Made by a program: the position numbers and the translations under genes. The notes under the pieces are model-generated. The model ran no database searches. It saw only the letters and a program-made list of their open reading frames with translations, and was not told where the DNA came from. 64,000 nucleotides of DNA from an uncultured Clostridia bacterium (lineage in GTDB: Bacteria; Bacillota; Clostridia; Christensenellales; Pumilibacteraceae), in assembly GCA_944362615.1 (NCBI GenBank), contig CALVTM010000001.1:62001-126000 (forward strand), in the 5' to 3' direction. This document shows positions 29,592-63,300 of the stretch, one piece after another (position 1 is the stretch's first letter; the number at the start of each line of letters is the position of its first letter).

Positions 29592-31219
29592 TTTTTTCCT
29601 GCCTTTTTACTTCTTGCCTCTTTTTGCTCAAGCGCCGCCGCAACAAACGCTTTGAATATAGGCTGAGGACGGTGCGGTCTGCTCTTGAATTCAGGATGAT
29701 ATTGCACGCCGATATAGAACGGATGATTGGGTAGCTCCACAGACTCCACCAGGTCGTTCTGCGGGTTGCGTCCGCCGATCACAAGTCCGAGTTCCGTAAA
29801 TTTTTCGCGGTACGCATTATTGAACTCAAAACGGTGACGGTGGCGTTCGTACACGGTAGTCGCACCGTCATATATGCGCGAAAGCAGTGTTCCGGGCGCG
29901 ACTTCGCATTCATAAGCGCCCAGTCGCATAGTGCCGCCGGTATTCTCCATGCCGTGCTGACCTTCCATGAAGTCGATAACTTTATCAGGAGAGTAATGAT
30001 CAAACTCGCGGCTGTTTGCTTCAGGAAGCCCCGCAACATGCCTTGCAAATTCAATGACCGCTATCTGCATGCCGAGACATATTCCGAAATAAGGTATGCC
30101 GTTTCCCCTTGCGTACTGAGCGGCAACTATCATGCCTTCTATGCCTCTGTCGCCGAAACCTCCGGGAACGAGTATGCCGTCAGCATCAGCAAGACGCTCT
30201 GCACAATTTTCCTCATTGAGCTTTTCACTGTCTACCCAGTCGATATTGATCTTCGCGCCGTTGTGTATACCGCCGTGCGTCAACGCCTCGATTATTGACA
30301 GATAGGTATCGAACATATGCGTGTATTTACCGCATATCGCTATTGTAACTTCTTTATCGCGCACCCTTGCCTTTTCAAGCATGTTCATCCAATCGGTAAG
30401 GTCGGGTTTATTGTCCGGCAAACCGAGCAGACGGCTCACTACTTCGCATATCTTGCTCTCCTCGAGCATGAGCGGCGCTTCGTACAACAATTTGACGTTG
30501 CGGTTTTCTATGACACAATCGGGGAACACATTACATGTCAATGCAATCTTTCTCTTGATCGCGTCGTCAAGTTTTCCGTCACAACGACAAACAATAAGAT
30601 CAGGCTGTATTCCGAGGCTTTGAAGTTCCTTTACGGAATGCTGTGTCGGTTTTGACTTCACTTCGCCGCTCGATTTTATCACGGGAACAAGCGTTACATG
30701 GATATATATGCAATTTTCCCTGCCCACCTCGTTTCCTACCTGACGAATCGCCTCGAGGAACGGTAGACTTTCTATGTCGCCTATCGTGCCGCCTATCTCT
30801 GTTATAACAACATCAGCACCGTCTTTTTTTGCAACGGAATATACAAATCGCTTTATCTCATTTGTTATGTGCGGTATTACCTGTACGGTTTCTCCGTTGT
30901 ACACACCGTTACGCTCGTTATTCAGAACGTTCCAGTATACTTTACCCGTCGTAAGGTTGGAATACTTATTGAGGTTTTCATCAATAAAACGCTCGTAATG
31001 TCCGAGGTCAAGGTCGGTTTCAGCACCGTCTTCCGTTACGAATACCTCTCCGTGCTGATACGGACTCATCGTACCCGGATCTATATTGATGTAAGGATCC
31101 AGCTTCTGAGATACTACTTTCAGACCCTTTGCCTTCAGCAGCATTCCCAGACTTGCAGCCGTTATACCCTTTCCCAGACCGGATACAACTCCGCCCGTAA
31201 CGAAAATGTACTTCGTCAT
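29588..31219 (-). CDS. pyrG: CTP synthase (canonical copy)
   Basis: 543 aa. The N-terminal synthase domain ([49 protein letters not shown]) aminates UTP using ATP. The C-terminal glutaminase domain has an intact triad: Cys in GICLGMQ, His508 and Glu510 in YHPEF. A basic tail ([11 protein letters not shown]) follows. It overlaps carB-dapF and dapL as ATGA. A second, altered copy lies at 53671-55227. Confidence 0.97.
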
Positions 31220-51714: not shown

Positions 51715-53016
51715 ATGATAACCGCTCTTGCAGGCGCCCAGTGGGGCGACGAAGGCAAAGGAAAGATCATCGACATTATGGCGGCTAAAGCCGATGTTGT
51801 CGTACGCGCTACCGGCGGCAATAATGCCGGACATACCGTCGTAAGTAACGGTAAAACGTACAAGCTTCATCTCGTACCAAGCGGTATTTTATACGACGGT
51901 ACGATCTGCTGCATCGGACCAGGCTGTGTTGTTGACCCGCTTTCACTTCTCAAGGAAATGGATGAAGTACGCGCAAACGGTACGTCGCTTGACGGGCTGC
52001 GTATCGATTACCGCGCTCACATAGTTATGCCCTACCACCTCATTATCGATGAGCTTGCGGAACTTTCCAAAGGCGCCGGCGATATAGGCACAACAAAAAA
52101 AGGCATAGGTCCCTGCTATATGGATAAAGCCGAGCGTGTCGGTATCCGCTTCTATGACCTCATCCATCCGGACGTTTTTGCGGATAAACTGCGCATAATG
52201 CTTGAAAATAAAAAGAAATATATAACCGGCATGTTCGGTAAAGAGGCATATGAAAAACGCGCGGATCTACTGGACTACGACAAAGTTCTCGCGGCTTATA
52301 ATGATGCTGCGGACAAACTTAAAGGCTATGCGGCAGACACTACGGTTATCGCATATAACGCAAACAAAGAAGGTAAAAACGTTTTGTTTGAAGGTGCACA
52401 GGGAACTTTGCTCGATCTCGATATGGGTACCTATCCTTACGTTACGAGTTCTCACCCCGTAACCGGCGGCTTCTGCGTAAGCGCGGGCATAGGTCCTACG
52501 CTTATCGATGAATGCATAGGTATCGCAAAGTGCTATACCACAAGAGTCGGCAAAGGTCCTTTCCCTACTGAACTGTTTGACGAAACAGGTGATTTTATCC
52601 GTGAAGCCGGCGCTGAATACGGCGTTACGACCGGCCGCCCCCGCCGCTGCGGATGGCTGGACCTCGTTATACTTCGCTATGCGGTCAGAGTAAACGGACT
52701 CACCGGTATCGCTCTTAATAAACTGGATACGCTTACAGGGCTTAAAGAAATCAAAGTCTGCATAGGCTATGACAACAACGGTCAACTGATATCCGACTTC
52801 CCTGCCGATATACGTGAACTGGAAAAGTGTACACCCGTTTATAAGATCATGCCGGGCTGGACTGAGGACATAACAAAGGCGACCAAACTGGAAGATCTGC
52901 CGGAAGCTGCTATTGAATATCTTAAACTCATACAGAGTGAGATCGGATGCAAGATAGCTCTTGTCGGCGTCGGTCCGGACAGAATTCAGAGTTTCCCCGT
53001 CTCGATAAATATCTGA
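51715..53016 (+). CDS. purA: Adenylosuccinate synthetase
   Basis: 433 aa. GTP site GAQWGDEGKGKIID at the N-terminus, catalytic His in GGNNAGHTV, GIGPCYMDKAERVGIR, and the C-terminal VGVGPDR. It joins IMP and aspartate on the way to AMP. AAGGAG precedes ATG 51715, 2 bp after the FolT-like gene. Confidence 0.97.
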   Translation: MITALAGAQWGDEGKGKIIDIMAAKADVVVRATGGNNAGHTVVSNGKTYKLHLVPSGILYDGTICCIGPGCVVDPLSLLKEMDEVRANGTSLDGLRIDYRAHIVMPYHLIIDELAELSKGAGDIGTTKKGIGPCYMDKAERVGIRFYDLIHPDVFADKLRIMLENKKKYITGMFGKEAYEKRADLLDYDKVLAAYNDAADKLKGYAADTTVIAYNANKEGKNVLFEGAQGTLLDLDMGTYPYVTSSHPVTGGFCVSAGIGPTLIDECIGIAKCYTTRVGKGPFPTELFDETGDFIREAGAEYGVTTGRPRRCGWLDLVILRYAVRVNGLTGIALNKLDTLTGLKEIKVCIGYDNNGQLISDFPADIRELEKCTPVYKIMPGWTEDITKATKLEDLPEAAIEYLKLIQSEIGCKIALVGVGPDRIQSFPVSINI

Positions 53017-53670: not shown

Positions 53671-55227
53671 TTACAGACATTTGGAAACAAATAACCTGAT
53701 AAGCTTATCCGGATTACCTACTTTTGCGTTGAATTCCGGTTGGAAAGTGACTCCAACCCAGAATTTTTTATCCGGCAATTCAAATGCATCTATAAATCCG
53801 TCATCAGATCTGCCGCTAATAATAAGCCCGGACTTAACATATGCCGCTTCATACGCGGGATTAATTTCATAACGATGACGATGCCGCATTTTAATCGCCG
53901 CTTCTCCGTACGCATTATACAGTTCAGTGCCTGCTTCAACTTTGCTTATATGCGCTCCCTTCTTGAACAGAGTACGTCCCTCGCATACTACCGGTGATTT
54001 TGTGCTCTTACTGAACTCGCGGCTGTCAGCATCCGCAAGACCGATAACGTCGCGCGCGTAATCAACTATACCGGCATGTGCGCCGAGTCCGATCATAAGA
54101 CAAGGAATATTCTTAACTCTCGCATAATGCGCTGCGGCTATCTTGCCTGAAAATCCGCGTTCACCGAAACCGGCGGGAATGATCACACCGTCATAACCGG
54201 AAAGCTTTTTATCGACATTCTCACTGTTTATACTGTCCGAACTTACGCCGACCGCTTCACAGTCAGAGCTGAGATCGTAACCGGCATAACGCAAAGCCTC
54301 GTAAAGAGATACGTATGCGTCGTGCATTTCCACATACTTGCCTACTACCGCTATGCGCACCTTGCGCTGCTTTTCCTGTTTGTATGCCGCAGTCGCCGCC
54401 TTTTCCCACTTATTCAGGTCTGCCTTACGATCCTCAAGGCGCAGCTTACGCAGAACTGCCGACGCAAAACCCTCACGCTCAAGTTCAAGAGGTATTTCAA
54501 GAATGTTATCTGTCGTAAGATTTTCTATTATGCAGTCCTGTTTCACATTGCAAAACGCCGCCATCTTCTTTTTACTTCCCGCTTCAAGCGGATAATCAGA
54601 GCGGCATACGATAACGTCGGGCTGGATTCCCATGTTCGACAGTTCTTTAACGGAATGCTGAGTCGGCTTTGTCTTCTGCTCTCCGCTCATTTCAAGGAAA
54701 GGTACATAGGAAACGTGAACGTATGCTATATTGTCGTTTCCCGCAAGGACTCTGAGTTGCTTGAACGCTTCAAGAAACGGAGTACACTCTATGTCGCCGA
54801 CCGTTCCGCCGACGTCTACTATAACTATTGTGCCGTCATCCGGCGTAAGAAGCTGATTGCGTATTTCATCGGTAATGTGCGGTACTACCTGCACCGTGCT
54901 TCCGTCATACTTGCCCTCACGCTCATTTTCAATTACTTTCGCATATACCCTGCCGCTTGTGATGTCACTGCGTCCTGTCAGACATTCGTCTATAAAACGC
55001 TCATAATGACCGATGACCAGATCGGTCTCCGCACCATCATCCGTAACGAATATCTCACCGTGCTGATACGGCGAAAGATTGGACGAATCCACGTTGAAAT
55101 ACGGATCAAACTTCTGCAGCGTCACTTTGTAACCGCGAGCTTTGAGCAGTGCGCCCAGAGACGCAGCCGTTATTCCCTTTCCTATGCCGGAGACAACTCC
55201 TCCGGTTATGACTACATATTTTGTCAT
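53671..55227 (-). CDS. CTP synthase paralogue with inactivated glutaminase site
   Basis: 518 aa. The synthase half keeps the key parts: [43 protein letters not shown], and the metal-ligand Glu region as VDVGGTVGDIE (Glu to Asp). The glutaminase half keeps its fold and RHRHRYEIN, but the nucleophile GICLGMQ is MIGLGAH (Gly380, codon GGA at 54090-54088) and YHPEF is FQPEF (Gln496 for His; Glu498 kept). It should not use glutamine; it could use free ammonia, bind UTP/CTP as a sensor, or co-assemble with the normal enzyme. AGGAGG precedes the ATG, 15 bp after the HEPN gene. The canonical pyrG is at 29588-31219. Confidence 0.9.
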   Translation of the reverse strand: MTKYVVITGGVVSGIGKGITAASLGALLKARGYKVTLQKFDPYFNVDSSNLSPYQHGEIFVTDDGAETDLVIGHYERFIDECLTGRSDITSGRVYAKVIENEREGKYDGSTVQVVPHITDEIRNQLLTPDDGTIVIVDVGGTVGDIECTPFLEAFKQLRVLAGNDNIAYVHVSYVPFLEMSGEQKTKPTQHSVKELSNMGIQPDVIVCRSDYPLEAGSKKKMAAFCNVKQDCIIENLTTDNILEIPLELEREGFASAVLRKLRLEDRKADLNKWEKAATAAYKQEKQRKVRIAVVGKYVEMHDAYVSLYEALRYAGYDLSSDCEAVGVSSDSINSENVDKKLSGYDGVIIPAGFGERGFSGKIAAAHYARVKNIPCLMIGLGAHAGIVDYARDVIGLADADSREFSKSTKSPVVCEGRTLFKKGAHISKVEAGTELYNAYGEAAIKMRHRHRYEINPAYEAAYVKSGLIISGRSDDGFIDAFELPDKKFWVGVTFQPEFNAKVGNPDKLIRLFVSKCL

Positions 55228-55242
55228 TTTTCCTCCTGTCCG

Positions 55243-56445
55243 TCAGTCCTCTGCTATAGCAAAGCCTATCTCGCTGAGTTTTTTACAGTTGTATTCTATT
55301 ACGGAAAGCAGCTTCCCGAGTATCTTCTGAGCTTCCGCCTTGTCGGATATTCCGCGCGAACGACTGTCGGCAGCATTCTCTGAGTGTGTGTAGAAGTTCC
55401 GCGTCGCATAGTATTCCGTGTATAACGACGTCATAACTTCAGAATATACCACCGAGTTTATCCTCTTCAGATATCCTTTCTTCAGCATATATTTTCCGTC
55501 TTCATCCTTTTCATATGCTTGCCCTATCATTTTCACGTTTATCCCTTCCGCCTGCTGAAGGTCATATATGAGCTTTTCAAGAGCACGGTAAGGAGTAATC
55601 AGCAGTACGGAATAATCGGACAAGCGGGATATATTTGCAAAGTCAGTAAGACCGTTGCTGAGATCTATCCTGCTCGCTTCAGAGAGATATCTGAGCGAAA
55701 CAGACAAGTATTTGCGCAGCAATTTCATATCGCATTTGCTCGTAAGTCTGTCCCGCACAAGTTTGATCAGCGGACTCTTTTTCCCTGTAATGCAGACTGA
55801 CGTGCCTTCCATGCGAAGCTCTGCCGTGTTTTTATCCGCGTCCGTAAGCGTCCATGAGGCATTGCCGGTGTGCGCCGTTACTTTTATACCGTCTGAGGAC
55901 TTCATGTCTTTAAGAGCCCAATCAAGTCGTTTGCGGGTTATGCCCTTCAGCGTTTCGGTTTCTACAGCCGGTTTTTCGGGCTTGCGTCTGGTCTGCTTTT
56001 TAGTTTTCCCCTCGCCACTGTCGGGAACCTTTTTCTGCGGTTGCTTTTCCGGCTTCGACTTCACGGCTTTCGGCGTCTGTGATTGTCTGACCGTCTGCTT
56101 CTGTTTTGCAGGCTGTTTGGACTGTCCCGTAACCGCCGCCTGATTCGTTTGCTGAGCGGCAACCTGCTTTGCCGGTTTCTGTACGCCTTCCGGAAGTATA
56201 GGACGCAATGCCGTAAGTTGTTCCGCGGGCGCATCTATCGTAAGTATTTTCGCAACGGTATCATATACCACTGTGATTTTCTCGCCCGCCGGAGATTGAT
56301 ACTGATATATCTCCAGATGACTTACTTCTGACGTCGGGGTATACTTTTTGCGGACATATCCCGCGCCTTCCATTTTTATAAATGCCTTGCTGACGGAAAA
56401 TTCATCACATCCGTCTATTCGCAGACGTTCTATAACAGTACTCAT
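55243..56445 (-). CDS. RnlA-like HEPN ribonuclease protein
   Basis: 400 aa. Residues 1-90 form an alpha/beta domain; 95-165 are a low-complexity Gln/Lys/Pro linker; 168-240 are a second alpha/beta domain; 245-400 are helical. The helical part has RNFYTH (Arg349-x4-His354) and Glu290 59 residues before the Arg. E. coli RnlA (RNase LS toxin), as I recall it, has Glu258, Arg318 and His323 with the same spacing and a similar three-part layout. I infer a HEPN RNase. No RnlB-like antitoxin is next to it; the downstream partner is the altered CTP synthase. The ATG overlaps the DUF1667 stop (ATGA), so it is translated with a metabolic operon. Confidence 0.7.
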   Translation of the reverse strand: MSTVIERLRIDGCDEFSVSKAFIKMEGAGYVRKKYTPTSEVSHLEIYQYQSPAGEKITVVYDTVAKILTIDAPAEQLTALRPILPEGVQKPAKQVAAQQTNQAAVTGQSKQPAKQKQTVRQSQTPKAVKSKPEKQPQKKVPDSGEGKTKKQTRRKPEKPAVETETLKGITRKRLDWALKDMKSSDGIKVTAHTGNASWTLTDADKNTAELRMEGTSVCITGKKSPLIKLVRDRLTSKCDMKLLRKYLSVSLRYLSEASRIDLSNGLTDFANISRLSDYSVLLITPYRALEKLIYDLQQAEGINVKMIGQAYEKDEDGKYMLKKGYLKRINSVVYSEVMTSLYTEYYATRNFYTHSENAADSRSRGISDKAEAQKILGKLLSVIEYNCKKLSEIGFAIAED

Positions 56446-56798
56446 AATGCTTCCTTTTCGACCGCTGAGGTCGACACTATCCTTTCGCCGAGCAATGATG
56501 CAAAAAGCGTCTGTCCTTCCGCTACGGGCGCGTCAACGCTGAGTTTAAGCAGCAGCCTCGAAAGCGGAAGTATTTTTGTGACGGCTATCGGATATGCTGT
56601 CTTTGCGGAAACCACAGGAGAACTTCCGCCACGCACGCGCACATTGAATGTCACCTCCCGCGTGGGGTTTATATATTCGCCCAGCGCATATTCTTTCCCT
56701 CGCGGACACTTATTACCGGAAATCGTTATCTCATAAAGATCACTGTCCGCCCGCAGTGTGCAACCGCGCTCACATGCCGTACATTTGATTTCTTTCAT
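56442..56798 (-). CDS. DUF1667 family protein
   Basis: 118 aa. The start is ATG 56798 (MKEIKCTACERGC), which overlaps the upstream stop as ATGA with GGAG before it. The Cys motif CTACERGC and GNKCPRGKEYALGEYINPTR are family signatures and probably bind a metal or cluster. DUF1667 proteins normally accompany the two glycerol-3-phosphate or 2-hydroxyacid oxidoreductase flavoproteins, as here. Confidence 0.85.
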   Translation of the reverse strand: MKEIKCTACERGCTLRADSDLYEITISGNKCPRGKEYALGEYINPTREVTFNVRVRGGSSPVVSAKTAYPIAVTKILPLSRLLLKLSVDAPVAEGQTLFASLLGERIVSTSAVEKEAL

Positions 56799-58000
56799 TG
56801 TTTCTTCTCCGCGCTCACAGTCAGACATTCGCCTTCTCCGATCTCTTCGGAGCTGAGCCGCAAACGTATTTCTTTACCGGCGTTCAGCATGCGCGGTTCC
56901 GTCTGCTTAACTATATTACCTGACCCATCACGAAAAACCAATGTTCCGGAGTCCATTGTTTCCGTTACCCGTATGCTCACGTCCGCATACCTGCCCGCTG
57001 TTGCCCGTACAGGCAGGACATACGCTATACAGTTACCCTTTCTGATAAATTCACGGCGATCAGATATGACGCCATGCCTTGCGTATTCTGCTGCGGAATA
57101 ACCTGCCATTCCCCCTTCTGCGGCGGCACAGTCGCATAAGCCGCATGAATGCAATGCACCTCCGACTATAAATATCCCTGCGGTATCCGTCATGTAATGG
57201 GAGTCGACTTCTGCTATTCCGTTATCGTCACAACTGACGTAAGGTATCAATGAAGCGTCGGGCACTCTTCCCACAGCGCACACTACGGCATCGCAACGCA
57301 GAGAGAACTCTTTCTGCGGCGTACGCACCAATACCTCACGAACGCGTTTATCACCTTTCAGTCCCATTACTTCTGCAGAAACATAAACCGGGATGCGCAG
57401 ATCATCAAGGCACTCTTGTCTCATTCTTGCACTTGTGCTGAGGAACGGTCGCCTTTCTATAACACCGGTTACCATTGTTCCTTCAAGCGCAAGTCTGCGC
57501 GCCACAGTCAACGCATCGCTGCCCGCACCTATTATTACCGCGCGGTTTCCTATACGCCTGCCATACAGGCAATGAGCGGCAAGCGCATCGGAAGCGGAAT
57601 AAATTCCCTCAATACCGCTCGGACAGCGTATCCCGCATGCCGCAAACTGTCTGTCTTTACCACCGCTTGCTATAATAACCGCACCGGCTTTGAAAACGTT
57701 ATTACTTGCTCCAAGCGTTTCTATTTCACGATCACGGCTTACCGATATTACAGAGGAATGAATGATTTTTACGTTGCGCATGCCACTGAGCATTTTTTTA
57801 CAATGCGAAACAAATTCCGGTCCCGTCATCGTTTCGCCGAACATGCTTTCTCCGACACCGCCCTCTATGTGCGTCATCATTCTTCCGCCAAGTTCCGCCG
57901 CTTCCGCAAGCACAACATTAAGCCCGCTTGCTCCGGCTGAAGCAGCAGCAGCCATTCCCGCCGGTCCGCCGCCTATGATGAATACGTCCGTTGTACGCAT
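56795..58000 (-). CDS. FAD/NAD(P)-dependent oxidoreductase, GlpB-like position in a three-gene operon
   Basis: 401 aa with FAD site IIGGGPAGMAAAASAG, NAD site AVIIGAGSDALTVARR and FAD closing block GIFIVGGALHSCG. In relatives the region after the first fold reads GGILxQCIHxGFG; here it is GGRMMTHIEGGVG, so the usual Cys is absent. The C-terminal 90 residues look like an Ig-type or beta domain. The substrate is not known. TAATG junction with the gene before it and AAAGGAGG upstream. Confidence 0.82.
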   Translation of the reverse strand: MRTTDVFIIGGGPAGMAAAASAGASGLNVVLAEAAELGGRMMTHIEGGVGESMFGETMTGPEFVSHCKKMLSGMRNVKIIHSSVISVSRDREIETLGASNNVFKAGAVIIASGGKDRQFAACGIRCPSGIEGIYSASDALAAHCLYGRRIGNRAVIIGAGSDALTVARRLALEGTMVTGVIERRPFLSTSARMRQECLDDLRIPVYVSAEVMGLKGDKRVREVLVRTPQKEFSLRCDAVVCAVGRVPDASLIPYVSCDDNGIAEVDSHYMTDTAGIFIVGGALHSCGLCDCAAAEGGMAGYSAAEYARHGVISDRREFIRKGNCIAYVLPVRATAGRYADVSIRVTETMDSGTLVFRDGSGNIVKQTEPRMLNAGKEIRLRLSSEEIGEGECLTVSAEKKQ

Positions 58001-59301
58001 TACACCTCCTTTGCGAAAAAACCGCTGTCAGAGCAGTATCTTTCCATTGCCGCCGCAAGTCTTGCACCGCCGCTCTCCCCCACGTGAAGCAACCGGCGTT
58101 CCAGTCCGTCTATGGTATCGGCACCGCGCAAAACGGCGTCTCGCACTTCGCCTTCAGTGACCGGTGGGGATGCAAGCACTATCGACGAATATGCTTTATC
58201 TTTACGCACAAGGGCTGCACGCTCCGATGCGGACAACGCTGCCACATGTACCGGCTTCGTGCGGGTTGATATAAAATTACAACGCTTTTCAAGCGAATAT
58301 GAGCGGGCAACAGCCATAGCAAGTGCAGGAGCAAGGGTTATTCCCATGTCATCCATGCCTATAACGTGTCTTACTCCGTTCAGCTTACCCTTTCTGTCGA
58401 TAATATCTCCGCCGTGTGCATACGAGTACAACCTGGCGTACCTGAGTACGGGTTCAAAGGCAAGTTCAACCGGACCTTCAAAGCTAACGCCGTCGTAAGG
58501 AATAACTTCCGGCACCATACGTCGGCTACTTACCCTTTCGCACACGGCAGCTACAGAATCGCCCGGGCATGGCAGTACGGATCTGTTTCCGCAGAATACG
58601 GGAATGCGCGGCGGCTGCTTGCATTTACTGACAACACAGTTTACGGCGGCGTGCTCAAGGTATATCAGATCACCGAACGCACGCGCCACCGGACCGCCGT
58701 TATTTCCGGAACAGTTTATGACATGATGTGCCTGTATACTGCGCCCGTCCGCGGATATTACGGTCACGCCTTCACCGTCCGTCGCTTTTTCTGCCTCAAA
58801 TCCGAAATAAAAGTGCGTCCCGTTTATCTCCGCGTTTTCCCTTAACGCAAAAACAAATTCACATGCGTCTGTCAAACCCGCTTCCGGAAAATACAAATAC
58901 CGCTCTTTTTCATTGCGCATCATAAGGTGCGGTTCAATTCTGAGTGCTTCATCGTACGCAAGCGTTTTGCACGATATTCCAAGGCTATTGCATTTATCTG
59001 TGATACGCACTGCGTCAAAACTATCGTCACATACGTAAAGGCATCCGGTACGCCTATACGTAACGCCAAGTGCGGCAGAGTACGACCTGAACATCTTCTC
59101 ACCCGCCGCAGCGTATTTCACTGCTGAAGGACGATACGGAAAAAGCGCGCGTGCGGCACACACTACGCCGCCCGTACGAACTTCGGAAGAACACACGTCC
59201 TTTCCGGACTCCGCCACGGCTACACTTGCGTTGAATCTTGACAGCTCCCTCGCTATCGCGCAACCGATGACGCCTCCACCGATGATCAGGAAATCGTACA
59301 T
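58000..59301 (-). CDS. FAD-dependent oxidoreductase, GlpA/LhgO-like
   Basis: 433 aa, DAO fold: FAD site FLIIGGGVIGCAIARELSRF. Relatives (anaerobic glycerol-3-phosphate or 2-hydroxyglutarate dehydrogenase type, about 480-500 aa) have an NSGIVHAG-type motif after the FAD site and a C-terminal BFD-like [2Fe-2S] domain. Here the first reads RTGGVVCAARA. The BFD remnant VTEGEVRDAVLRGADTIDG persists, but CRC is replaced by LASPP and the later Cys pair by ESGGARL, so the cluster is probably lost. First gene of the operon that ends with the second CTP synthase; its promoter predicts a leaderless mRNA. Confidence 0.82.
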   Translation of the reverse strand: MYDFLIIGGGVIGCAIARELSRFNASVAVAESGKDVCSSEVRTGGVVCAARALFPYRPSAVKYAAAGEKMFRSYSAALGVTYRRTGCLYVCDDSFDAVRITDKCNSLGISCKTLAYDEALRIEPHLMMRNEKERYLYFPEAGLTDACEFVFALRENAEINGTHFYFGFEAEKATDGEGVTVISADGRSIQAHHVINCSGNNGGPVARAFGDLIYLEHAAVNCVVSKCKQPPRIPVFCGNRSVLPCPGDSVAAVCERVSSRRMVPEVIPYDGVSFEGPVELAFEPVLRYARLYSYAHGGDIIDRKGKLNGVRHVIGMDDMGITLAPALAMAVARSYSLEKRCNFISTRTKPVHVAALSASERAALVRKDKAYSSIVLASPPVTEGEVRDAVLRGADTIDGLERRLLHVGESGGARLAAAMERYCSDSGFFAKEV

Positions 59302-59418: not shown

Positions 59419-62400
59419 TTATCTCTTATTGGGCTTTCTTCTTCTGAATCTGATGAGGTAGATTACCACACCCGCAACAAGAAGTACGCCGACGATGATA
59501 AGCACTACCGCAAGAGTAGTTACCGCACCGGACGAAGGAGAGGTGCTTGAGCTGCTCGATACAACGATCGTATACTTAACTACCGTCGAGTTACCTGCAT
59601 CATCGGTTACCGTATATTCTACACGGTACTGGCCTGCAATACCAAGAGTATAAGAGCTGCCGTTGTTTGCAAGCGTACGGGAAGTAAGCGTTGCAATAAC
59701 AGAGTTATTGGGATCGATAAGTTCCTTCGTGTAGCTGAATCCGGTCGAAGGCTCGTTTACGGTGATGCTTGCGAAGTCGAACGTGTCGCCTACGTTAGCA
59801 GAAACAGTCGTTCCGGTAACGCGGGTTCCGTTGATCGAACCTACTGCAACATCAATGTTGGGAGCAACTACGTCGCCAACCTTAATCGTATATTCGTCAC
59901 TCGTAACAACGCGGTTGTTAAGGGTTGCGATGTAAGAGATCGTGTATACGCCGTCCTCGGTGGGTACGAACATAGCCATGTTGCCCTCAAACGTGATTCC
60001 CTTGTCTTCGCAGTATGCTTCGAACGCGCTTGCGTACGTGGAAGGAATGGTGTCTCCAGCCATGTATACAGCTGCGCTGTCGCCGTCTGCATCAACAACG
60101 TCTACTTCGATATCGGAAGCTGCGCCGTTGGTAGAGTAAGCTGAAAGGTTGGGAAGCACTACGAATACCTTATTGTCTTCAGCGTATTTCGTGCTGTATA
60201 CAGGCATCGTGCCCTGAAGCTCGAATACTGCGGTAGAAGAGTCGGTTGCGTTGACAGTCGTCGTGCTTACTGCAAGATTTGCAGAAGATATTCCCTTGTA
60301 GCTGTAATCGCCGTTTGCGGTGTTACCTGCTGCGTTGCCTACAACTTCAGAACCATCGTTTCTGTTGATGTATTCATAGCGAATCATCGACTGAAGAGCA
60401 TTGGATCCGGTGTAACCGTTATCAAGACTCTGCTCATATACATAGTCGGTGAACTCATAGTAACCGGTGGAGTATACGGTAACTTCATTTCCTACGACTG
60501 CAATCTTGCCGCCCTTTATGCTGCGTACGATACCGAACGTAGCGTCTTCAGACGTTCCGGGGATGCTGTCGGTGTTGACATTGTATTTGCTGTTGAGCTT
60601 GTAGGTCTGTCCTACCGAAAGCGTAGAAGGAAGATTGCTTGCTGCGGAAACTTCTATTCCGCCGCCGGAGTTACCGGTGATCTGTACGAACGCCATACGT
60701 ACGTCGCTCTGACCGAGAACGTTGTATGCGCGAACCACTACCATGTAAATACCTGCGTTGGACGGAGTGAATCTGATGTTATCAATGTAAGTGCGGTTTG
60801 CAAGCTGGCTGTAGCCGTCTGCGTTTGCATTTGCGCTGTACGTTTCGAATGCAACGTCTCCGAGAGGATTCTCGTCAACTGCCTCGTTATCTGCGTTTGC
60901 AACGCGCTGAACGTAAAGCTCAAAGCCGGTGTAATCGCGGAGGTAGTCGGAACCATAGCTGATTACTGCGGAGCCTACTACGATCTCCTCGCCTGCCTTG
61001 CCGCTTACGTCAAGAGCGCCGAAGCTGATGGAAGGAGCTGCGCTGAACGCATCGCTGTCAACTACTTCAATAGGAGTTACAAGGCTTTCAACATTGCCTA
61101 CGTCATCGGTTGCCTTTGCAATAACGTATACGGTAGAAGCCGTAACGGTTACGGTCACCTCATCGCCATCGGAGTTGATAACGGTAAGCTCGTTGCCGTT
61201 GCCTTCGTTGACAAGAGTGAGCGTGTTGGTGCCGAGTGCAGAAGGAAGCTCTACATAGCCGCCTTTGTCAGTAGCTGCGTCGTATTCGGTAAGATTGCCG
61301 AGTACGGTATCAAAATCAGGATTGGTTTCAGGGTCAACGGTGGACGCGAATACAAGGTAGTATTCAATGTCCAGTCTGGTGTCCTGGGTATCTATGATAG
61401 ATACATCGTCGATAGTTACATCCGACTCATACTCTCTGAATACAAGGTAATCAGGAGCATCGAAATCAATGGTCGGCGTGCCGACATCACTGAGCGTGCT
61501 GCTGAGATTTATCGAGAAGGTCTGAGATCTGCTGTTTCCTATCGTATCACGCGCGGTGTAGCTTACAGAGTAAGAACCAGTGGTAGCAGTGCCGCGTGCA
61601 AAGTTGAAGTTACCTACGTATTCCTTGGTATCGGGATCGTACTTAACAAGCACATATACATCTCCGCTGATGCCTTCGCCGGTGATCTTGAAGTCATCGC
61701 TTACGCTGTACTTGCCGGACTCCCAGTATCTGAAGAATGCATACGTCTTTCCGTTATCATAGTTGGAATTGGAGGACGTTACGGACGACGAATACTCGGT
61801 AGCATAAATGTTCGTGAACGAAAGCAGAGTGTTCTTATCAGGATCGCTCATCGTGAAGGAAACACGAAGATCCGAATCGTTATCGTTATTATCGATAAGC
61901 TCAGGCATCGGGAATGCAATATCGGTGGACTCAAGCTTAACTGCTTCGTCCGCATTTCCTTTGTCGCCGTGATTCACTGCATCGTATGCTCTCTCTACGC
62001 TGTTGAGTCCCCAGTTGGAAGGGATTATCATCGTATCGAATTCATCGAACTGAGGCGCAGTCGTATCGGAAACGTTGATGCGGTAAGGATGTGCAGCTGT
62101 CTCGTTTCCGGACGTATCCTTCGCCTGGTATACAACGTTGTAAATACCCGTCTCGGTAGGATAGAAGCTCATGAAGTTGTCGTTATCGAACGTAACTACT
62201 ACAGCCTCGGCAGGGTTCGTCGTGGTCTCACGCTTGCCTTCCGAATTATATGCGTATGCAGTATTGTCATCTGCAGCCGCTTTGTAGTAAAGTGCGTTTC
62301 CTTCACTGTCCTTCTTTGCATAACCGGTGTCAGCATCTATAACCGCAGCAACTACGTTACGCGCTTCGTTTTCACCCGCGTAAGTGTGCGTCACCGTGAT

Positions 62401-63300
62401 GCTTACCTGTACACGCTCATCATAGTTATCCGTAGCCGTTGCTGCGGGAAGCGTGATCTCAGTGCCTATAGACTCCGAAGAAGATATACCGGATACGTTA
62501 AGGCTGGGCGCGGTATCATCGGAGAACTGCGTCTGCGCCTGCATCGTGTACTCTTCAGACATTACGTTCTTTCCGCCTGCAAGCTGTGCATAGTAGGTAA
62601 AGAAGTATGTTCCCGCCTGTTCGGGCTTGACGGTTACTCCGCCTGCGGGCCATGCGGTCGCATCAGCGTCATCTGCGTCATACATGTTGTAAAGAGTCGT
62701 GCTTCCGTCAGGATAAGTAACTCTGCAGTATACTTCGCTGCTGTCCTCTTCCATGTTTACGGGGAACCACTCTTCATCCGTTTCATCGTAGTAGTAAAGC
62801 GTAGCTTCGGGGATAACTATTTCTTCAGCGTCAGTACCGGACTGTACGAAAGTAGGAATGGAAGCGCCATAACCGTCTACTATAAATTTATAGTCATAGT
62901 CGCTGTAGCATTCTACATTATAGAAATAGCTGCCGGTGTATTTGTTGGAACCGGAATTCTCGGTGGAAGTACGGGTGTACGTCACACGATATACTCCAAG
63001 CTCGTCCGCTTTTACGGTGTATCCGTTTACGCCGACACTGCCGAGTGCCGAACCTTCAAGCACTACTCCGCCCGGCGTCTTTACGCTTACGGTAACATTA
63101 TTACCGGGATCAGCAACCGTGAAGCTGCCGCCGTATTTGACTCTTTCGGTTATCTTGGTGTTTATAACCGTCTCTGCGCCGGCGCCATCCGCATTTGCGG
63201 TGTACGGTCCGACATAGGTCATGACCGTCGCGACAGCAAGAGCAAACGCAAGTACGAAAGCTATTATCATCGCAGCGGTTTTCTTTGTGATTCTTGACAT
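59419..63300 (-). CDS. Large surface protein with Ig-like repeats and C-terminal membrane anchor
   Basis: 1293 aa. Signal peptide: basic start (MSRITKKTAAM), hydrophobic core (IIAFVLAFALAVATVMTYVG), likely cleavage after ANA near residue 37. The body is a string of beta-sandwich domains, several with the HYR/Ig-like ending that reads YTVTDDAGNST, YQAKDTSGNET or YTARDTIGNSR. A Ser/Thr-rich stalk (SSSSTSPSS) precedes one membrane segment (about 1258-1282) and a basic tail (RFRRRKPNKR). There is no LPxTG or SLH motif. It is very acidic and nearly Cys-free. Probably a cell-surface adhesin or structural protein; the ligand is unknown. AAGGAG precedes the ATG. Confidence 0.85.
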   Translation of the reverse strand: MSRITKKTAAMIIAFVLAFALAVATVMTYVGPYTANADGAGAETVINTKITERVKYGGSFTVADPGNNVTVSVKTPGGVVLEGSALGSVGVNGYTVKADELGVYRVTYTRTSTENSGSNKYTGSYFYNVECYSDYDYKFIVDGYGASIPTFVQSGTDAEEIVIPEATLYYYDETDEEWFPVNMEEDSSEVYCRVTYPDGSTTLYNMYDADDADATAWPAGGVTVKPEQAGTYFFTYYAQLAGGKNVMSEEYTMQAQTQFSDDTAPSLNVSGISSSESIGTEITLPAATATDNYDERVQVSITVTHTYAGENEARNVVAAVIDADTGYAKKDSEGNALYYKAAADDNTAYAYNSEGKRETTTNPAEAVVVTFDNDNFMSFYPTETGIYNVVYQAKDTSGNETAAHPYRINVSDTTAPQFDEFDTMIIPSNWGLNSVERAYDAVNHGDKGNADEAVKLESTDIAFPMPELIDNNDNDSDLRVSFTMSDPDKNTLLSFTNIYATEYSSSVTSSNSNYDNGKTYAFFRYWESGKYSVSDDFKITGEGISGDVYVLVKYDPDTKEYVGNFNFARGTATTGSYSVSYTARDTIGNSRSQTFSINLSSTLSDVGTPTIDFDAPDYLVFREYESDVTIDDVSIIDTQDTRLDIEYYLVFASTVDPETNPDFDTVLGNLTEYDAATDKGGYVELPSALGTNTLTLVNEGNGNELTVINSDGDEVTVTVTASTVYVIAKATDDVGNVESLVTPIEVVDSDAFSAAPSISFGALDVSGKAGEEIVVGSAVISYGSDYLRDYTGFELYVQRVANADNEAVDENPLGDVAFETYSANANADGYSQLANRTYIDNIRFTPSNAGIYMVVVRAYNVLGQSDVRMAFVQITGNSGGGIEVSAASNLPSTLSVGQTYKLNSKYNVNTDSIPGTSEDATFGIVRSIKGGKIAVVGNEVTVYSTGYYEFTDYVYEQSLDNGYTGSNALQSMIRYEYINRNDGSEVVGNAAGNTANGDYSYKGISSANLAVSTTTVNATDSSTAVFELQGTMPVYSTKYAEDNKVFVVLPNLSAYSTNGAASDIEVDVVDADGDSAAVYMAGDTIPSTYASAFEAYCEDKGITFEGNMAMFVPTEDGVYTISYIATLNNRVVTSDEYTIKVGDVVAPNIDVAVGSINGTRVTGTTVSANVGDTFDFASITVNEPSTGFSYTKELIDPNNSVIATLTSRTLANNGSSYTLGIAGQYRVEYTVTDDAGNSTVVKYTIVVSSSSSTSPSSGAVTTLAVVLIIVGVLLVAGVVIYLIRFRRRKPNKR

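What the first reader, a model, noticed from the sequence alone, without database searches (positions are those of the whole stretch)
53671..56445. Candidate two-gene system: RnlA-like HEPN RNase plus altered CTP synthase
The two genes are 15 bp apart on one transcript. HEPN RNases normally act as toxins or defence effectors with a partner that restrains or triggers them; here the partner slot is filled by a nucleotide-binding enzyme without glutaminase. A nucleotide-sensing defence or stress module (CTP/UTP pool controls RNA cleavage) would explain the pairing. I know of no described system of this kind.
Basis: inference. Interest (0 to 1): 0.85.

Follow-up and report, generated by a model that had tools for sequence, protein, structure and literature searches.

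The report
RnlA-type RNase beside glutaminase-dead CTP synthase
In one family of gut Clostridia (named members: Pumilibacter, Anaerocaecibacter, Protoclostridium), an RNA-cutting protein related to the E. coli toxin RnlA has become an ordinary inherited gene, usually in one operon with a spare CTP-making enzyme that can no longer use glutamine; the pairing is real and undescribed as far as searched, but it does not behave like a toxin-antitoxin or phage-defence unit.

Summary
Window 55243-56445(-) encodes a three-domain RnlA/LsoA-type HEPN protein; 15 bp downstream, 53671-55227(-) encodes a CTP synthase paralogue (CT2) whose glutaminase nucleophile Cys is Gly. A normal PyrG lies elsewhere in the same window (29633-31219). 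The pair recurs in 45 of 74 genomes of the same family (11 genera); the HEPN protein was found nowhere outside that family.

The defence/toxin-antitoxin reading is not supported. HEPN is a core, vertically inherited gene (65/74 genomes; none in viral contigs or plasmids). CT2 has been lost about eight to ten times while HEPN kept its active site (R-x4-H in 64/64) under purifying selection, so CT2 is not an obligatory antitoxin. CT2's UTP/ATP-site residues are essentially invariant; only its glutaminase is relaxed. Three relatives carry a Cys-less CTP synthase as the only one found, and the window's genome has a GATase-less GMP synthetase beside a normal one, so an active, ammonia-fed enzyme is the simplest reading. 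Best explanation: a domesticated RNase-LS-type RNase co-expressed with an optional ammonia-type CTP synthase that tunes pyrimidine supply; direct nucleotide-sensing control of the RNase remains possible and untested.

The parts
55243..56445 (-). RnlA/LsoA-type HEPN protein, 400 aa: TBP-like NTD (res 1-80), low-complexity linker, NRD (162-235), HEPN domain (240-392)
55270..55728 (-). HEPN catalytic domain: R287-x2-E290 (counterparts of RnlA R255/E258, E258 recalled from memory) and R349-x4-H354 (RnlA R318/H323, H323 recalled from memory)
   Evidence: R349, H354, E290 invariant in 49 aligned members; R-x4-H in 64/64 loci; R255A and R318A mutants are named in PDB titles
55228..55242 (-). 15-bp gap between HEPN stop and CT2 start; median gap in relatives 50 nt
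53671..55227 (-). CT2: CTP synthase paralogue, 518 aa, synthase site kept, glutaminase triad lost (C379G, H515Q), E140D in this genus
56442..56828 (-). DUF1667 protein gene overlapping the HEPN start by 4 nt (upstream part of the same gene run in Protoclostridium only)
56795..58000 (-). Pyr_redox FAD oxidoreductase gene, upstream in the same gene run
58000..59301 (-). DAO/GlpA-like FAD oxidoreductase gene, upstream in the same gene run
59419..63300 (-). large secreted/membrane-anchored Ig-like protein; its homologue lies upstream of HEPN in nearly all family loci with enough upstream sequence, with or without CT2
29633..31219 (-). canonical PyrG with intact C379/H515/E517; shows CT2 is an extra copy (48% identical)
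51715..53016 (+). purA, convergent neighbour; marks the far side of the CT2 slot (empty-site comparison G033/G034)

Best explanation
A domesticated RNase-LS/RnlA-type endoribonuclease, a core gene of this family, is co-transcribed with an accessory ammonia-type CTP synthase paralogue (CT2). SHOWN by sequence and structure comparison: RnlA homology with active-site residues kept; CT2 has lost glutaminase residues but kept the UTP/ATP/Mg site (E140 is D in this genus); CT2 sequences form one group, sit after HEPN, were found alongside a normal PyrG, and have been lost repeatedly with HEPN retained. INFERRED: the HEPN protein cleaves cellular RNA (by RnlA precedent mRNA, often 3' of pyrimidines) as a resident RNA-turnover or stress RNase, kept safe by its own control rather than by CT2; CT2 makes CTP from UTP, ATP and free NH3 (abundant in the gut) and is co-expressed so that pyrimidine triphosphate supply is adjusted when RNA turnover changes. 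CT2 is a helpful, dispensable accessory, not an antitoxin.
For: HEPN in 65/74 family genomes (42 of 43 good-quality ones); in a draw of 396 genomes of the order all 31 hits lie inside the family and none in the roughly 363 genomes of other families; none in viral contigs or plasmids; syntenic CoaX-HSD-surface protein-HEPN-(CT2)-purA block: a vertical core gene. HEPN-domain dN/dS 0.02-0.09 with CT2 and 0.01-0.07 in comparisons involving CT2-less genomes. CT2 losses: at least 8 changes forced on the HEPN tree; clean empty site G034 vs G033 with a 57-bp purA-HEPN gap. CT2: K18, K40, D72, H118, D147, E149, K187, K189, Q192, R211 kept in 45/45, K223 in 44/44 with sequence; C379 gone in 44/44 (28). 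CT2 identity among three genomes of the window's genus: synthase 0.84-0.90 vs PyrG 0.89-0.92, GATase 0.53-0.65 vs 0.83-0.88. Precedents: Cys-less CTP synthase as the only one found in G063, G072, G073; GATase-less GMP synthetases in several relatives and as a second copy beside the full one in the window's own genome.
Against: No activity is shown for either protein. E140D in this genus touches a metal ligand (from knowledge of E. coli CTPS) and could mean CT2 here is no longer an enzyme. The dead GATase domain is kept at full length under purifying selection (w 0.04-0.08), odd if it does nothing, and compatible with a regulatory role. CT2 was never found without HEPN apart from one contig-edge case (Fisher p=0.001, ignoring relatedness of the genomes), suggesting dependence, though single origin plus slow synteny would also give this. 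GATase-less GMPS may use a separate GATase subunit, so it is not proof of ammonia use. Coupling of RNA turnover to CTP supply is conjecture.
Confidence: 0.45

Rival explanations
1. Nucleotide-sensing RNase complex: CT2 tetramers bind UTP/ATP/CTP and dock on the HEPN protein, raising or lowering RNA cleavage with the CTP/UTP ratio; CT2 is a sensor subunit, not mainly an enzyme.
For: Operon-like short gap in 11 genera; nucleotide-site residues invariant while glutaminase is lost; E140D in this genus may weaken catalysis; dead GATase domain kept under selection; CT2 only found beside HEPN apart from one contig-edge case.
Against: HEPN keeps its active site and its constraint after CT2 loss; no binding evidence; synthase-domain constraint is equally explained by catalysis.
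Confidence: 0.22
2. The two genes share only a position: slow gene-order change in this family keeps a core RNase and a spare CTP synthase next to each other, with no functional tie.
For: The whole neighbourhood is syntenic; the surface-protein gene is an even steadier neighbour of HEPN than CT2; four loci have extra sequence or a gene between HEPN and CT2 (L082, L125, L113, L120); CT2 is lost freely.
Against: HEPN-CT2 spacing is operon-like (median 50 nt) and always co-directional, while a three-gene FAD-enzyme cassette came in on the other side of HEPN in this genus.
Confidence: 0.22
3. Toxin-antitoxin or anti-phage module with HEPN as toxin and CT2 as the restraining partner.
For: RnlA and LsoA are anti-T4 toxins in TA operons (PMC3710099, PMC7180214); active-site residues intact.
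Against: CT2 lost about eight to ten times with intact, constrained HEPN; near-universal vertical inheritance in the family, none in plasmids or viral contigs; no RnlB-family match in 74 genomes (31, though that search had no positive control); no convincing PADLOC match; housekeeping neighbours.
Confidence: 0.06

Closest known systems
RnlA / LsoA (RNase LS) toxins with RnlB / LsoB antitoxins, E. coli
   Same: Same three-domain layout NTD-NRD-HEPN in the predicted model; R-x-x-E and R-x4-H residues; best structural match of the model is RnlA (6y2p, 4i8o, 7aex), best sequence match LsoA (5hy3).
   Different: No RnlB-family neighbour or homologue found; long low-complexity linker between NTD and NRD, with AT-hook-like motifs in 18 of 64; core gene of one family; next to a CTP synthase paralogue or with no dedicated partner.
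CTP synthase PyrG
   Same: Full-length fold; UTP/ATP/Mg residues kept (E140 is D in this genus); about 46-52% identical to most other clostridial PyrG proteins.
   Different: Nucleophile Cys lost in 44/44, His515 changed in most; separate paralogue group; found alongside a normal PyrG; glutaminase domain evolving faster.
HepT-MntA (HEPN/MNT) toxin-antitoxin
   Same: HEPN RNase next to a nucleotide-using enzyme.
   Different: MntA is an adenylyltransferase that chemically modifies and blocks HepT (PMC7641770 abstract); CT2 is not a nucleotidyltransferase and is dispensable here.
TBP-like-domain RNase LS proteins (e.g. Geobacillus, PMC3710099)
   Same: RNase LS HEPN with an N-terminal TBP-like domain, proposed to target RNA in RNA-DNA hybrids.
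   Different: That survey lists only RnlB as operon partner of RNase LS and its main text does not contain a word starting with CTP.

Membership tests
RnlA/RNase LS family (protein) | HEPN (DBD) domain with R-x4-H and upstream R-x-x-E | tested here: met
   R-x-x-E was not matched by the search pattern in L123, L124 and truncated L114
RnlA/RNase LS family (protein) | NTD + NRD beta-alpha domains before HEPN | tested here: met
   model secondary structure E-H-EEEE-H twice; profile alignment covers NRD+HEPN of LsoA; RnlA top fold match
RnlA/RNase LS family (protein) | endoribonuclease activity | not testable with these tools
   residues only
RnlAB-type toxin-antitoxin system | RnlB antitoxin in the operon | tested here: not met
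   no RnlB-like neighbour among the genes annotated; no PF15933 match in 74 genomes, but that search rang in none of its 14 control genomes, so genome-wide absence is weaker
RnlAB-type toxin-antitoxin system | an obligatory partner that neutralises the toxin | tested here: not met
   for CT2 as that partner: lost repeatedly with active-site-intact HEPN; a distant unrecognised antitoxin elsewhere is not excluded
Anti-phage defence system | patchy distribution, mobile-element or defence-island context | tested here: not met
Glutamine-hydrolysing CTP synthase | Cys-His-Glu glutaminase triad | tested here: not met
   C379G, H515Q, E517 kept
CTP synthase (ammonia-dependent) | intact synthase site and activity with NH3 | tested here: inconclusive
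   ligand residues kept, E140D in this genus; activity not testable

The most novel reading that the evidence does not exclude
CT2 is a CTP/UTP-sensing regulatory subunit that sets the activity of an RnlA-type HEPN RNase, so RNA decay is gated directly by the pyrimidine nucleotide pool: a nucleotide-controlled HEPN RNase built from a repurposed biosynthetic enzyme.
Probability: 0.2. Interest if true: 0.82.

Novelty: new variant of a known kind. Interest (0 to 1): 0.5.

Why it matters
RnlA-type HEPN RNases are known as toxins leashed by an antitoxin. Here one has become a fixed gene of a whole bacterial family without an evident RnlB, which makes testable how a toxin-type RNase is domesticated and controlled. 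The repeated natural loss of its CTP synthase neighbour gives ready-made comparisons (e.g. sister species G033/G034), and the glutaminase-dead paralogue points to a wider use of free ammonia for nucleotide amination in gut Clostridia.

Tried and rejected
Toxin-antitoxin with CT2 as antitoxin: rejected as obligatory, because HEPN persists intact without CT2. Mobile or phage origin: no relatives in IMG/VR or PLSDB. RnlB elsewhere in the genome: no match, but the same search rang in none of the 14 control genomes, so it is weak. Structured RNA in the operon: none in Rfam at gathering score. CT2 outside the family: in 107 other genomes of the class only PyrG-like matches up to 560 bits were seen; of the 20 outside sequences fetched and aligned, all keep C379 and 19 keep H515. 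Co-occurrence of CT2 with GATase-less GMP synthetase: read by eye, no clear correlation, so it is used only as a precedent. Complex prediction of HEPN with CT2 was not possible (single-chain tool).

Full report
WHAT IS THERE. Two - strand genes at 55243-56445 and 53671-55227, 15 bp apart. The first (400 aa) hits Pfam RnlA-toxin_DBD weakly alone (E=4e-4), but the evidence becomes strong with its family: all 22 aligned relatives hit that model, the family profile matches LsoA 5hy3 over NRD+HEPN at 5e-10 and 3e-12, and the AlphaFold model (mean pLDDT 85) shows two E-H-EEEE-H domains and a mostly helical C-terminal domain; its nine Foldseek matches below 0.001 are all E. coli RnlA entries (best 4e-12). 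The whole-chain TM-scores are low (0.32-0.34), as expected when domains are joined by a flexible linker and pTM is 0.54. The catalytic residues align: R287-x2-E290 with the RAIE of LsoA, and R349-x4-H354 with its RHGLFH. The second gene is a complete CTP synthase with C379->G and H515->Q. The same window holds a canonical PyrG at 29633-31219, 48% identical. In this genus the pair is preceded by three overlapping genes of two FAD oxidoreductases and a DUF1667 protein, which clustering of neighbours found only in loci of this genus.

HOW WIDE. In 74 genomes of the same family, 65 have the HEPN protein (42 of 43 good-quality ones) and 45 have CT2 downstream of it on the same strand (43 within 380 nt, two with a gene between; 11 genera; median gap 50 nt). 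A GTDB scan gave 64 loci; those with informative titles are Pumilibacter, Anaerocaecibacter, Protoclostridium or unnamed Clostridia bins, with a few bins under other names (Christensenella, Roseburia) that are probably mislabelled. In a draw of 396 genomes of the order, all 31 hits lie inside the family. No relatives in viral contigs or plasmids.

CT2 IS OPTIONAL. On the HEPN-domain tree the presence/absence of CT2 needs 10 changes, at least 8 forced by well-supported branches; two CT2-less loci (L090, L115) end near a contig edge and could be wrong. CT2 sequences form one group against PyrG on a fully supported branch (quick tree, some long branches), and sit at one position, so one gain and many losses is the simplest history. 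In one genus, G033 has purA-CT2-HEPN while G034 has purA and HEPN 57 bp apart with nothing between. HEPN keeps R-x4-H in 64 of 64 loci, with and without CT2, and its dN/dS is 0.01-0.07 in comparisons involving CT2-less genomes against 0.02-0.09 with CT2 (synonymous sites near saturation in some pairs). An active toxin that needed CT2 for restraint would not be expected to survive this.

WHAT CT2 PROBABLY IS. Ten UTP/ATP-site residues are kept in 45/45 sequences and K223 in 44/44 with sequence there; E140 is E in 34 and D in 11, the window among the latter type; C379 is G in 43 and S in 1 of 44. The roles and numbers of these residues are from my knowledge of E. coli CTP synthase. Synthase-domain identity between genomes is close to PyrG's within the genus (0.84-0.90 vs 0.89-0.92) and lower than PyrG's across genera, while the GATase domain has diverged much faster but still under purifying selection. 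Independent glutaminase losses occur in the family: G063, G072 and G073 have a single CTP synthase match and it lacks the Cys, G071 and G067 have further Cys-less copies, and GATase-less GMP synthetases are common, including a second copy about 70 bp after a full-length one in the window's own genome. These genomes are incomplete and GMP synthetase can use a separate GATase subunit, so this is a precedent, not proof. It makes an ammonia-fed, active CT2 the simplest reading.

WHAT THE HEPN PROTEIN PROBABLY DOES. RnlA cleaves mRNA, often 3' of pyrimidines, and is stimulated by RNase HI (PMC7180214); an RNase HI gene is present here. TBP-like domains in this family were proposed to bind RNA-DNA hybrids (PMC3710099). 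AT-hook-like motifs in 18 of 64 linkers hint at DNA proximity in one sub-group. I infer a resident RNA-turnover or stress RNase. How its activity is kept safe is unknown. No RnlB-family match was found, but that search had no positive control.

CAUTION ON ADJACENCY. The whole block CoaX-homoserine dehydrogenase-surface protein-HEPN-(CT2)-purA is slow to rearrange, and the surface-protein gene is a steadier neighbour than CT2. Adjacency alone therefore says less than it seems; the short co-directional gap is the better sign of an operon.

VERDICT. Observation confirmed; interpretation partly supported. A new variant: an RnlA-type RNase without an evident RnlB, fixed in one bacterial family, usually next to a glutaminase-dead CTP synthase. 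Direct nucleotide control of the RNase is possible (about 0.2) and would be the notable outcome. One literature search for CTP synthase together with HEPN returned a single genome paper on an amoeba parasite; subscription papers are not covered.

Noticed in passing
window 59419-63300; homologues in L062-L125: A roughly 1000-1300 aa secreted/membrane-anchored Ig-like protein of unknown function lies upstream of the HEPN gene in nearly every family locus with enough upstream sequence, whether or not CT2 is present.
   Followed up: partly
G000:C2 near 241776-243101 (L203): The window's genome has a full-length GMP synthetase and, about 70 bp downstream, a second GMP synthetase without GATase domain (326 aa); similar short copies occur in many relatives.
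   Followed up: partly
L193 (G063), L195 (G072), L194 (G073), L192 (G071), L189 (G067): Other CTP synthases of the family that lost the glutaminase Cys outside the CT2 group, in three genomes the only CTP synthase found.
   Followed up: partly
L079, L081, L082, L084, L086-L088, L092, L093, L097, L098, L100, L101, L103-L105, L112, L121: HEPN proteins of the Anaerocaecibacter group carry one or two AT-hook-like RGRP motifs in the linker, suggesting DNA binding.
   Followed up: partly
L082:7038-8864, L125:6489-7976: Single genes (radical SAM/SPASM protein; tandem ABC ATPase) inserted between HEPN and CT2 without breaking their common direction.
   Followed up: no
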